Shown: in pieces, positions 21,447-22,793 of the stretch | Numbering within the stretch: position 1 is the first letter of the stretch | Layout of the letters: every line of letters begins with the position of its first letter | Source of the DNA: Deltaproteobacteria bacterium | GTDB taxonomy: Bacteria; Myxococcota_A; UBA9160; UBA4427 | NCBI GenBank assembly: GCA_029261835.1 | Contig: JAJDAO010000050.1 | Location: 186,001 to 250,000, forward strand | Direction: 5' to 3' | Length of the DNA: 64,000 nucleotides | The notes under the pieces: model-generated | The model's input: the letters and a program-made list of their open reading frames with translations, nothing else | What the model was told of the DNA's origin: nothing | The model's database searches: none | Position numbers and translations under genes: made by a program

Positions 21447-22793
21447 ATGATTCCCATGATGGATCTGCAGGAGAGGGCGGTGCGCGGCCGAGTGATGCAG
21501 GCCGACGATTTCGACCTCGAGTTCGCCTTCAAGGTGCGTGAGCTGATCGACAAGTACGGCATCAAGTACGACCCGGAGCAGCTCGTTGTCGACGACGCCA
21601 CTGCCGATGCGGTCTTCGAGGCTGGTGTCGAGCTGTTGTCCGAGATCGGCCTCTACATGATGAGCAGCCACCGGGTGGTCGGGTACGGTGAGGAAGAGCT
21701 TCGTGAGATCGCGCGCGAGTCACGGGAGAACCCTGCCTGCCTGACCTTCGGTCGCTCTCCGGACCAGATGACGCTTCGTCATCGCAAGAGCAGCGACAGC
21801 CGGGCACCGGTCAGCTATGCGGGCGCACCCGGCGTGGCCGAGATCGACTGGTTCATCCCCTACGTGCAATCCTTCATCCAGGAGCAGCGCGTGGTGGGTA
21901 TCGGCATCGCGCCCGGCCTCGCCGCGCTCGGTCCGGTCGAGCCCAAGGCCGGCACGCTGAGTGAGGTGCACGTGGCGCTGTGGGAGCAGGAGGCGCTTCT
22001 GGAGGCCGCCCGCCGCGCCGGTCGTCCGAATATCAACCTCGGGCTCCTCTGCACGGCGAGCACGCCCAGCGCAACGATGGCCATCATGCGGCCCGGGCTG
22101 CGAGAGGCCTACAACACGCAGATCGGCATCCATATCATGCCGGAGCAGAAGCTGAGCTGGAATCCGCTGCTGCTCGCGCAGTACTGCGAGCTGTGGGGAG
22201 TCGAGCCGTGGCAGAGCTCCATGTCGTGCATCGGTGGGCTCTGTCGCGACGCCGCCGAGGTGGCGGTCACCATGGTGGCCAATGCGCTCGGCCAGATGAG
22301 CTACGCCCGCGGCGGCAGCATGAGCTATTTCCCCAGCCATCTCGACGGCACATGGGCGACTCGGCCCGCGCATTGGGCGTTCAGCGCGGCCGCCCGCGCG
22401 TCGGAGCGGCATCTGGGCCTCGCCGTCGGGACCTCGATCTCGGGCATCACGGATGCTTGGCGGACGCCCCTTACGCTCTGGCAGGCGGCGGCAGTCGCGG
22501 TGGTTTCGACCGCCAGTGGCATGTCGTACGCCTGGATCGCCGGCCACTCTGGACTCGAGGCCCGACTGATCGACGAGATCATGGAGGTGACGGCAGGCAT
22601 GCCGGCCGATCGGGCCAACGAGCTGGCGCAGAAGATCATGTTGAAGGTCGACGAATTGCTGCCCTCCGTGGATAAGCAGCTTCCCTTCCCGCAGGCCTAC
22701 GACATCGAGACCGTGCAGCCCAAGCCCGAGTACGAGGCGAGTCTACTCCGCGTGAAGGAGCAGCTGGCCAAGCTGGGAATGCCGTACGGCTGA
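21447..22793 (+). CDS. Corrinoid-dependent methyltransferase, MtmB-like without an in-frame amber codon
   Basis: Resembles recalled MtmB: KVRELIDKYGIKY...AGVELLSEIGLYMMSSHRVVGYGEEE, AGRP anchor, C-terminal SGLEARLIDEIMEVTAGM...AYDIETVQPKPEYE; SD GAGGGAGACAGAAG. Confidence 0.7.
   Translation: MIPMMDLQERAVRGRVMQADDFDLEFAFKVRELIDKYGIKYDPEQLVVDDATADAVFEAGVELLSEIGLYMMSSHRVVGYGEEELREIARESRENPACLTFGRSPDQMTLRHRKSSDSRAPVSYAGAPGVAEIDWFIPYVQSFIQEQRVVGIGIAPGLAALGPVEPKAGTLSEVHVALWEQEALLEAARRAGRPNINLGLLCTASTPSATMAIMRPGLREAYNTQIGIHIMPEQKLSWNPLLLAQYCELWGVEPWQSSMSCIGGLCRDAAEVAVTMVANALGQMSYARGGSMSYFPSHLDGTWATRPAHWAFSAAARASERHLGLAVGTSISGITDAWRTPLTLWQAAAVAVVSTASGMSYAWIAGHSGLEARLIDEIMEVTAGMPADRANELAQKIMLKVDELLPSVDKQLPFPQAYDIETVQPKPEYEASLLRVKEQLAKLGMPYG

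What the first reader, a model, noticed from the sequence alone, without database searches (positions are those of the whole stretch)
21447..22793. Candidate pyrrolysine-free MtmB-type methyltransferase
Against the MtmB sequence as I remember it, similarity spans the N-terminal block (IDKYGIKY...SSHRVVGYGEEE), the AGRP anchor and the C-terminal block (SGLEARLIDEIMEVTAGM...AYDIETVQPKPEYE). Canonical MtmB reads AGRPGMGV-Pyl-GPETS. Here AGRPNINL-G-LLCTAS has GGG (22041-22043), and no amber codon interrupts the 448-codon ORF. Pyl-less MttB homologues are known (e.g. glycine-betaine methyltransferases); I do not know of a characterised Pyl-less MtmB-type enzyme. The substrate is probably a non-methylamine compound, so this may be an undescribed methyltransferase system.
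Basis: partly seen in the sequence, partly recalled or inferred. Interest (0 to 1): 0.85.

Follow-up and report, generated by a model that had tools for sequence, protein, structure and literature searches.

The report
Estrogen-methylating enzyme operon, EmtA type
The flagged gene is a close relative of EmtA, the vitamin-B12-dependent enzyme with which a few known bacteria turn the hormone estrogen into an androgen without oxygen, found here in an uncultured bacterium outside the genera where it has been studied; the enzyme type itself is already known.

Summary
In detail: window 21447-22793 is an intact 448-codon MtmB-family gene with glycine (GGG, 22041-22043) where MtmB has pyrrolysine. Pyl-less MtmB-type enzymes have been studied: EmtA (estrogen C10 methylation, Denitratisoma), AbeA (androgen C19 demethylation) and MtqB (tetramethylammonium/choline).

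This gene is EmtA-type. It is 71% identical to the MtmB homologue B9N43_10325 of the estrogen degrader Denitratisoma sp. DHT3, 64% to that of D. oestradiolicum and 70% to that of Steroidobacter denitrificans. It nests with all three (support 100/99). The operon gives it away: 20281-20589 encodes a 102-aa protein whose family has only 64 database members, including one from each of those three estrogen degraders; 20666-21373 is the corrinoid protein (79% to S. denitrificans). A divergent TetR gene is conserved in place, and a 44-codon stump of the upstream oxidoreductase gene (emtD-like) remains at 20069-20203.

Best reading: a cobalamin-dependent methyltransferase that moves a methyl group between corrinoid and C10 of steroid ring A, probably methylating estrogens. 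Fold and family are well supported; substrate and direction are inferred. New member of a known kind, in an uncultured lineage that also carries an Abe-like cassette.

The parts
21447..22793 (+). emtA-like gene: Pyl-less MtmB-type methyltransferase, 448 aa
   Evidence: Pfam MtmB 134.5 bits; 70.5% to DHT3 B9N43_10325, 64% to D. oestradiolicum, 70% to S. denitrificans; tree 100/99; AF2 pLDDT 96, TM 0.90 to MtmB
22041..22043 (+). codon GGG (Gly199) at the position of Pyl202 of MtmB
   Evidence: alignments; codon read
20666..21373 (+). emtB-like gene: cognate corrinoid protein, 235 aa; DxHxxG motif DLHTIG at 20963-20980
   Evidence: Pfam B12-binding_2 and B12-binding; 79% to S. denitrificans, 71% to L052; motif
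20281..20589 (+). emtC-like gene: 102-aa protein of unknown role, diagnostic of the operon
   Evidence: 64 homologues in 5.8 billion proteins, among them S. denitrificans ACG33_12625 (75%), DHT3 B9N43_10315 (75%) and D. oestradiolicum (68%)
20069..20203 (+). 44-codon stump of an emtD-like (luciferase-type oxidoreductase) gene
   Evidence: 43% over 35 aa to the N-terminus of the S. denitrificans gene just upstream of emtC, E 3e-6; also found by whole-genome search, E 4e-4
19249..19857 (-). divergent TetR-family regulator
   Evidence: TetR_N + TetR_C_11; 57-60% identical regulators in the same place in S. denitrificans (L051) and the gammaproteobacterial MAG contig L052
19858..20068 (.). divergent promoter region with perfect inverted repeats GGTAT-N7-ATACC and ATACT-N3-AGTAT (candidate operators; not shown to be conserved)
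18164..19213 (+). URO-D / MtaA-CmuA-type methyltransferase with H-x-C ... C metal-site motif; possible second methyltransferase, link to the operon unproven
   Evidence: Pfam URO-D, MtaA/CmuA model 90 bits, below cut-off; HIC at 18887 and GCD at 19136
17000..18136 (+). FAD-dependent (DAO-type) oxidoreductase, 28 bp ahead of the URO-D gene; link to the operon unproven
   Evidence: Pfam DAO 194 bits

Best explanation
The gene is emtA of a three-gene emtC-emtB-emtA operon, the cobalamin-dependent estrogen methyltransferase of the Denitratisoma/Steroidobacter type. The MtmB-type barrel (EmtA) holds a steroid whose ring A it presents to the corrinoid of EmtB (DxHxxG protein). In the catabolic direction, methyl-Co(III) on EmtB gives its methyl group to C10 of the phenolate ring A, turning estradiol or estrone into a 1,4-dien-3-one androgen, which the cell can then degrade. 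The methyl donor to Co(I) is SAM in Denitratisoma. Co(I) lost by oxidation is restored by a RACo-type activator encoded elsewhere in this genome. With no amine to bind, the enzyme needs neither Pyl nor the MtmB glutamates. Shown here: family, fold, operon membership, loss of the Pyl site. Inferred: substrate, direction, methyl donor.
For: Sequence and tree: 64-71% identity to the MtmB homologues of the three estrogen degraders named in PMC7448270, nested with them at 100/99. Operon: the 102-aa EmtC-like family has 64 members worldwide; DHT3's is B9N43_10315 and its MtmB homologue B9N43_10325, two locus tags away. Its locus reads TetR / luciferase-type oxidoreductase / 102 aa / corrinoid / MtmB, with a RACo activator and SAM synthetase beside it, as published for the EMT region. 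Window: same order, same divergent TetR, plus an emtD stump. Genome: 3-ketosteroid dehydrogenase-like genes up to 723 bits, RACo twice, an intact EmtD homologue at 51%. Active site: Pyl202 to Gly, E229 to Gly, E259 to Ser.
Against: No estrogen growth or activity data exist for this organism. The PNAS 2020 paper is not held, so that B9N43_10325 is EmtA rests on locus-tag adjacency and published descriptions. The DHT3 EmtB was not among the best 120 corrinoid hits. emtD is truncated in place. No SAM-regeneration genes were seen among the neighbouring genes scanned by Pfam, and RACo lies on other contigs. The KstD-like proteins fall short of the curated cut-off (723 of 789 bits). The window clade is sister to the clade holding the studied enzymes, so specificity could have shifted.
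Confidence: 0.7

Rival explanations
1. Same enzyme family run in reverse, as in AbeABC: the steroid 1,4-dien-3-one is demethylated at C10 to an aromatic ring A, and the methyl group feeds C1 metabolism.
For: The reaction is reversible in Denitratisoma extracts. KstD-like enzymes that would make the 1,4-dien-3-one are in the genome. AbeA is reported 57% identical to EmtAB.
Against: The window gene is in the 21-row Emt clade, above the identity reported between Abe and Emt. No pterin-binding methyltransferase sits beside it, whereas one sits beside the C9 paralogue, which looks more Abe-like. The EmtC-like protein marks Emt loci.
Confidence: 0.12
2. EmtA-type enzyme acting on another aromatic-ring steroid or phenolic terpenoid, with the same C-methylation chemistry.
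For: Sister position of the window clade to the clade holding the studied enzymes; uncultured host; URO-D and DAO genes nearby and emtD lost, unlike the studied loci.
Against: 64-75% identity across EmtA and EmtC and about 79% for EmtB, with identical operon order, argues for conserved function.
Confidence: 0.13
3. One reading: a methyltransferase for quaternary amines, betaines or O-/S-methyl compounds, like MtqB.
For: MtqB is a Pyl-less MtmB homologue active on tetramethylammonium and choline.
Against: The gene belongs to the EmtA clade with the EmtC marker, and steroid-enzyme genes sit around its relatives.
Confidence: 0.05

Closest known systems
EmtABCD, estrogen methyltransferase of Denitratisoma sp. 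DHT3, D. oestradiolicum and Steroidobacter denitrificans
   Same: MtmB-type catalytic subunit without Pyl (64-71% identical), corrinoid protein (79% to S. denitrificans), 102-aa EmtC-like protein (68-75%), same gene order and same divergent TetR as in S. denitrificans
   Different: emtD reduced to a 44-codon stump; RACo not adjacent and no SAM-regeneration gene seen nearby; host is an uncultured 'Deltaproteobacteria' lineage; function untested
AbeABC, anaerobic androgen demethylase of Phosphitispora sp. TUW77
   Same: cobalamin-dependent methyl transfer at steroid C10, homologous A and B subunits (reported 57% identical to EmtAB)
   Different: opposite physiological direction; sequences not available here; the C9 paralogue of this genome, with corrinoid and pterin-binding methyltransferase, looks closer in gene content
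MtqB of Methanococcoides methylutens Q3c
   Same: Pyl-less MtmB homologue with its own corrinoid protein
   Different: acts on tetramethylammonium and choline in a methanogen; no EmtC-like or TetR setting reported
MtmB, monomethylamine methyltransferase
   Same: fold (TM 0.90) and full-length family match
   Different: 25% identity; Pyl202, Glu229 and Glu259 are Gly, Gly and Ser here; Gln333 aligns in a gapped, variable stretch

Membership tests
Emt (estrogen methyltransferase) operon | EmtA: MtmB-related catalytic subunit without amber codon, grouping with known estrogen degraders | tested here: met
   clade 100/99; identities; no amber codon
Emt (estrogen methyltransferase) operon | EmtB: corrinoid protein adjacent | tested here: met
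   20666-21373, 79% to S. denitrificans; DxHxxG
Emt (estrogen methyltransferase) operon | EmtC: small protein with no similarity to known families, adjacent | tested here: met
   20281-20589; homologues in all three estrogen degraders
Emt (estrogen methyltransferase) operon | EmtD: oxidoreductase adjacent | tested here: not met
   only a 44-codon stump; intact 51% homologue on contig C73; also absent beside emtC in L052, so not universal; hence the gene is filed as EmtA-type, not as a complete emtABCD cluster
Emt (estrogen methyltransferase) operon | reductive activator (RACo/RACE) available | tested here: met
   two in the genome, C100 and C47; the C47 one is 57% to that beside emt in L052; none adjacent here
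Emt (estrogen methyltransferase) operon | methylates estradiol/estrone at C10 | not testable with these tools
   needs an assay
MtmB, Pyl-dependent monomethylamine methyltransferase | in-frame amber codon for Pyl | tested here: not met
   GGG at 22041-22043
MtmB, Pyl-dependent monomethylamine methyltransferase | MtmB fold | tested here: met
   TM 0.90 to 1L2Q
MtmB, Pyl-dependent monomethylamine methyltransferase | active-site Glu229, Glu259, Gln333 | tested here: not met
   Gly227, Ser257 and a variable position; residue roles from general knowledge of MtmB
MttB / MtgB superfamily (COG5598) | MttB-type barrel and family match | tested here: not met
   only MtmB matches in Pfam; TM about 0.5 to MttB/MtgB
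MtqB | groups with M. methylutens MtqB | not tested
   MtqB sequence not available; window gene lies in the Emt clade
AbeABC | adjacent methyl-THF (pterin-binding) methyltransferase (assumed AbeC) | tested here: not met
   none beside the window gene; present beside the C9 paralogue

The most novel reading that the evidence does not exclude
An uncultured bacterium outside the studied denitrifiers and fermenters carries both an estrogen-methylating (Emt) operon without EmtD and an Abe-like demethylating cassette (contig C9: MtmB-type enzyme, corrinoid protein, pterin-binding methyltransferase, FAD dehydrogenase and BaiCD-like reductase). It could therefore interconvert estrogens and androgens in both directions within one cell.
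Probability: 0.25. Interest if true: 0.6.

Novelty: new member of a known kind. Interest (0 to 1): 0.4.

Why it matters
It replaces 'unknown methyltransferase' with a specific, testable activity on steroid hormones, and shows the estrogen-methylating operon well beyond the three cultured estrogen degraders. The 102-aa EmtC-like protein, with 64 homologues in 5.8 billion proteins, looks like a sharp genomic marker for this activity. The loss of emtD with emtCBA intact makes the role of EmtD testable.

Tried and rejected
MttB/glycine-betaine reading: rejected on Pfam and fold. Pyl-dependent MtmB: rejected, no amber codon and active-site residues replaced. NCBIfam has no model for the gene. Denitratisoma genomes themselves were not reached through the genome search (no hit near identity), so S. 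denitrificans served as named reference. The PNAS 2020 paper is not held; a search for the DHT3 locus-tag prefix in papers found nothing. KshA of the aerobic 9,10-seco pathway: no match in the genome. The window URO-D gene was compared with the URO-D next to emt in L052: no meaningful similarity, so it is not counted as part of the operon. A first tree contained three rows translated on the wrong strand; it was rebuilt. mlp gene clusters (PMC10418091) were considered from the abstract only and not pursued.

Full report
What is there. The ORF at 21447-22793 is intact, 448 codons, with glycine (GGG, 22041-22043) aligned to Pyl202 of MtmB. It matches Pfam MtmB end to end (134.5 bits). The AlphaFold model (pLDDT 96) has MtmB as its best solved neighbour (TM 0.90), while MttB and MtgB barrels reach only about 0.5. 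All 138 homologues aligned also have glycine at the Pyl position; MtmB Glu229 and Glu259 align with Gly227 and Ser257, and Gln333 with a gapped, variable position. So the Pyl site is glycine across a large family, and was not lost in this gene alone.

What it is. The best named relatives are proteins of Denitratisoma sp. DHT3 (B9N43_10325, 70.5%) and D. oestradiolicum (64%). These bacteria convert estrogens to androgens with a cobalamin-dependent methyltransferase encoded by emtABCD. Published accounts describe EmtA as an MtmB relative lacking the amber codon, EmtB as the corrinoid protein, EmtC as unlike known proteins and EmtD as an oxidoreductase; Steroidobacter denitrificans has similar genes (PMC7448270).

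The operon test. The window has a 102-aa gene (20281), a corrinoid gene (20666) and the MtmB-type gene (21447) in a row. The 102-aa family has 64 members in 5.8 billion proteins; the named isolates with one are exactly S. denitrificans (ACG33_12625), DHT3 (B9N43_10315) and D. oestradiolicum. Its locus (L051) reads TetR divergent from luciferase-type oxidoreductase, 102 aa, corrinoid and MtmB, with a RACo activator and SAM synthetase alongside. The window repeats TetR, 102 aa (75%), corrinoid (79%) and MtmB (70%). Where the oxidoreductase should start, a 44-codon stump matches its N-terminus (43% over 35 aa, E 3e-6; E 4e-4 in an independent genome search). A gammaproteobacterial MAG contig (L052) has the same cassette without the oxidoreductase. 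Contig lengths shared between the protein searches put MtmB and 102-aa genes on the same contig in 11 cases, the window's own contig included, though equal length is an indirect sign.

Phylogeny. In a tree of 59 sequences the window gene lies in a 21-row clade (100/99) with the MtmB homologues of all three estrogen degraders. Within it, the window and three metagenome proteins form a group (100/100) sister to the rest. The genome's other two MtmB-type genes (contigs C9 and C50:83980) fall outside, at 47% identity.

Genome setting. The genome encodes four 3-ketosteroid dehydrogenase-like proteins at 559-723 bits, below the curated 789-bit cut-off and one of them with an in-frame stop, two RACo activators, an intact EmtD homologue at 51% beside enoyl-CoA hydratase and thiolase genes, and no KshA. 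This fits anaerobic-type steroid catabolism but does not prove it. Relatives of the family in Desulfobacterales sit beside KstD-like and BaiCD-like genes, again pointing to steroids.

Host. The exact taxon is not told. The window itself has a Pup-proteasome cluster, RecA and MreB, so it is bacterial.

Mechanism. In Denitratisoma, SAM methylates Co(I) and the methyl group passes to C10 of the phenolic ring A; the reverse reaction occurs in extracts (PMC7448270). The same steps are inferred here. The URO-D (MtaA/CmuA-type) gene at 18164 keeps an H-x-C ... C metal-site motif and might handle methyl groups, but it converges on TetR from the other side and its link is unproven.

Known or new. Pyl-less MtmB-type enzymes with a studied function are EmtA (2020), AbeA (2025) and MtqB (2026). 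[quoted passage not shown] That AbeA belongs to the same MtmB-type family is inferred from the 57% identity to EmtAB stated in the review. The finding is therefore a new member of a known kind. Limits: the primary EmtA and AbeA papers were not readable here, and neither AbeA nor MtqB sequences could be placed on the tree.

Noticed in passing
L011 (G000:C9:244500-264400), 7569-14419: A second MtmB-type gene of this genome with divergent corrinoid and pterin-binding methyltransferase genes, followed by a FAD dehydrogenase and a BaiCD-like reductase: gene content suggestive of an AbeABC-type steroid demethylase.
   Followed up: partly
L012 (G000:C50:75000-94900), 8426-10321: A third MtmB-type gene, immediately downstream of what appears to be a broken KstD-like gene (two C-terminal fragments in different frames), near multihaem-cytochrome genes.
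   Followed up: partly
L013, L014, L016-L019: A separate group of Pyl-less MtmB-type proteins (about 28% identical) in genomes of the same family and order, with Gly at the Pyl position; function unknown.
   Followed up: no
L066 (G000:C47), 4319-9164: Cluster of URO-D, RACo, corrinoid protein and a second URO-D: another corrinoid methyltransferase system; its RACo is 57% identical to that beside emt in L052.
   Followed up: partly
window 22886-24631: Class I lysyl-tRNA synthetase directly downstream of emtA, in a bacterium.
   Followed up: no
window 8103-14844: Bacterial Pup-proteasome cluster with proteasomal ATPase, both proteasome subunits and two Pup-ligase-family genes.
   Followed up: no
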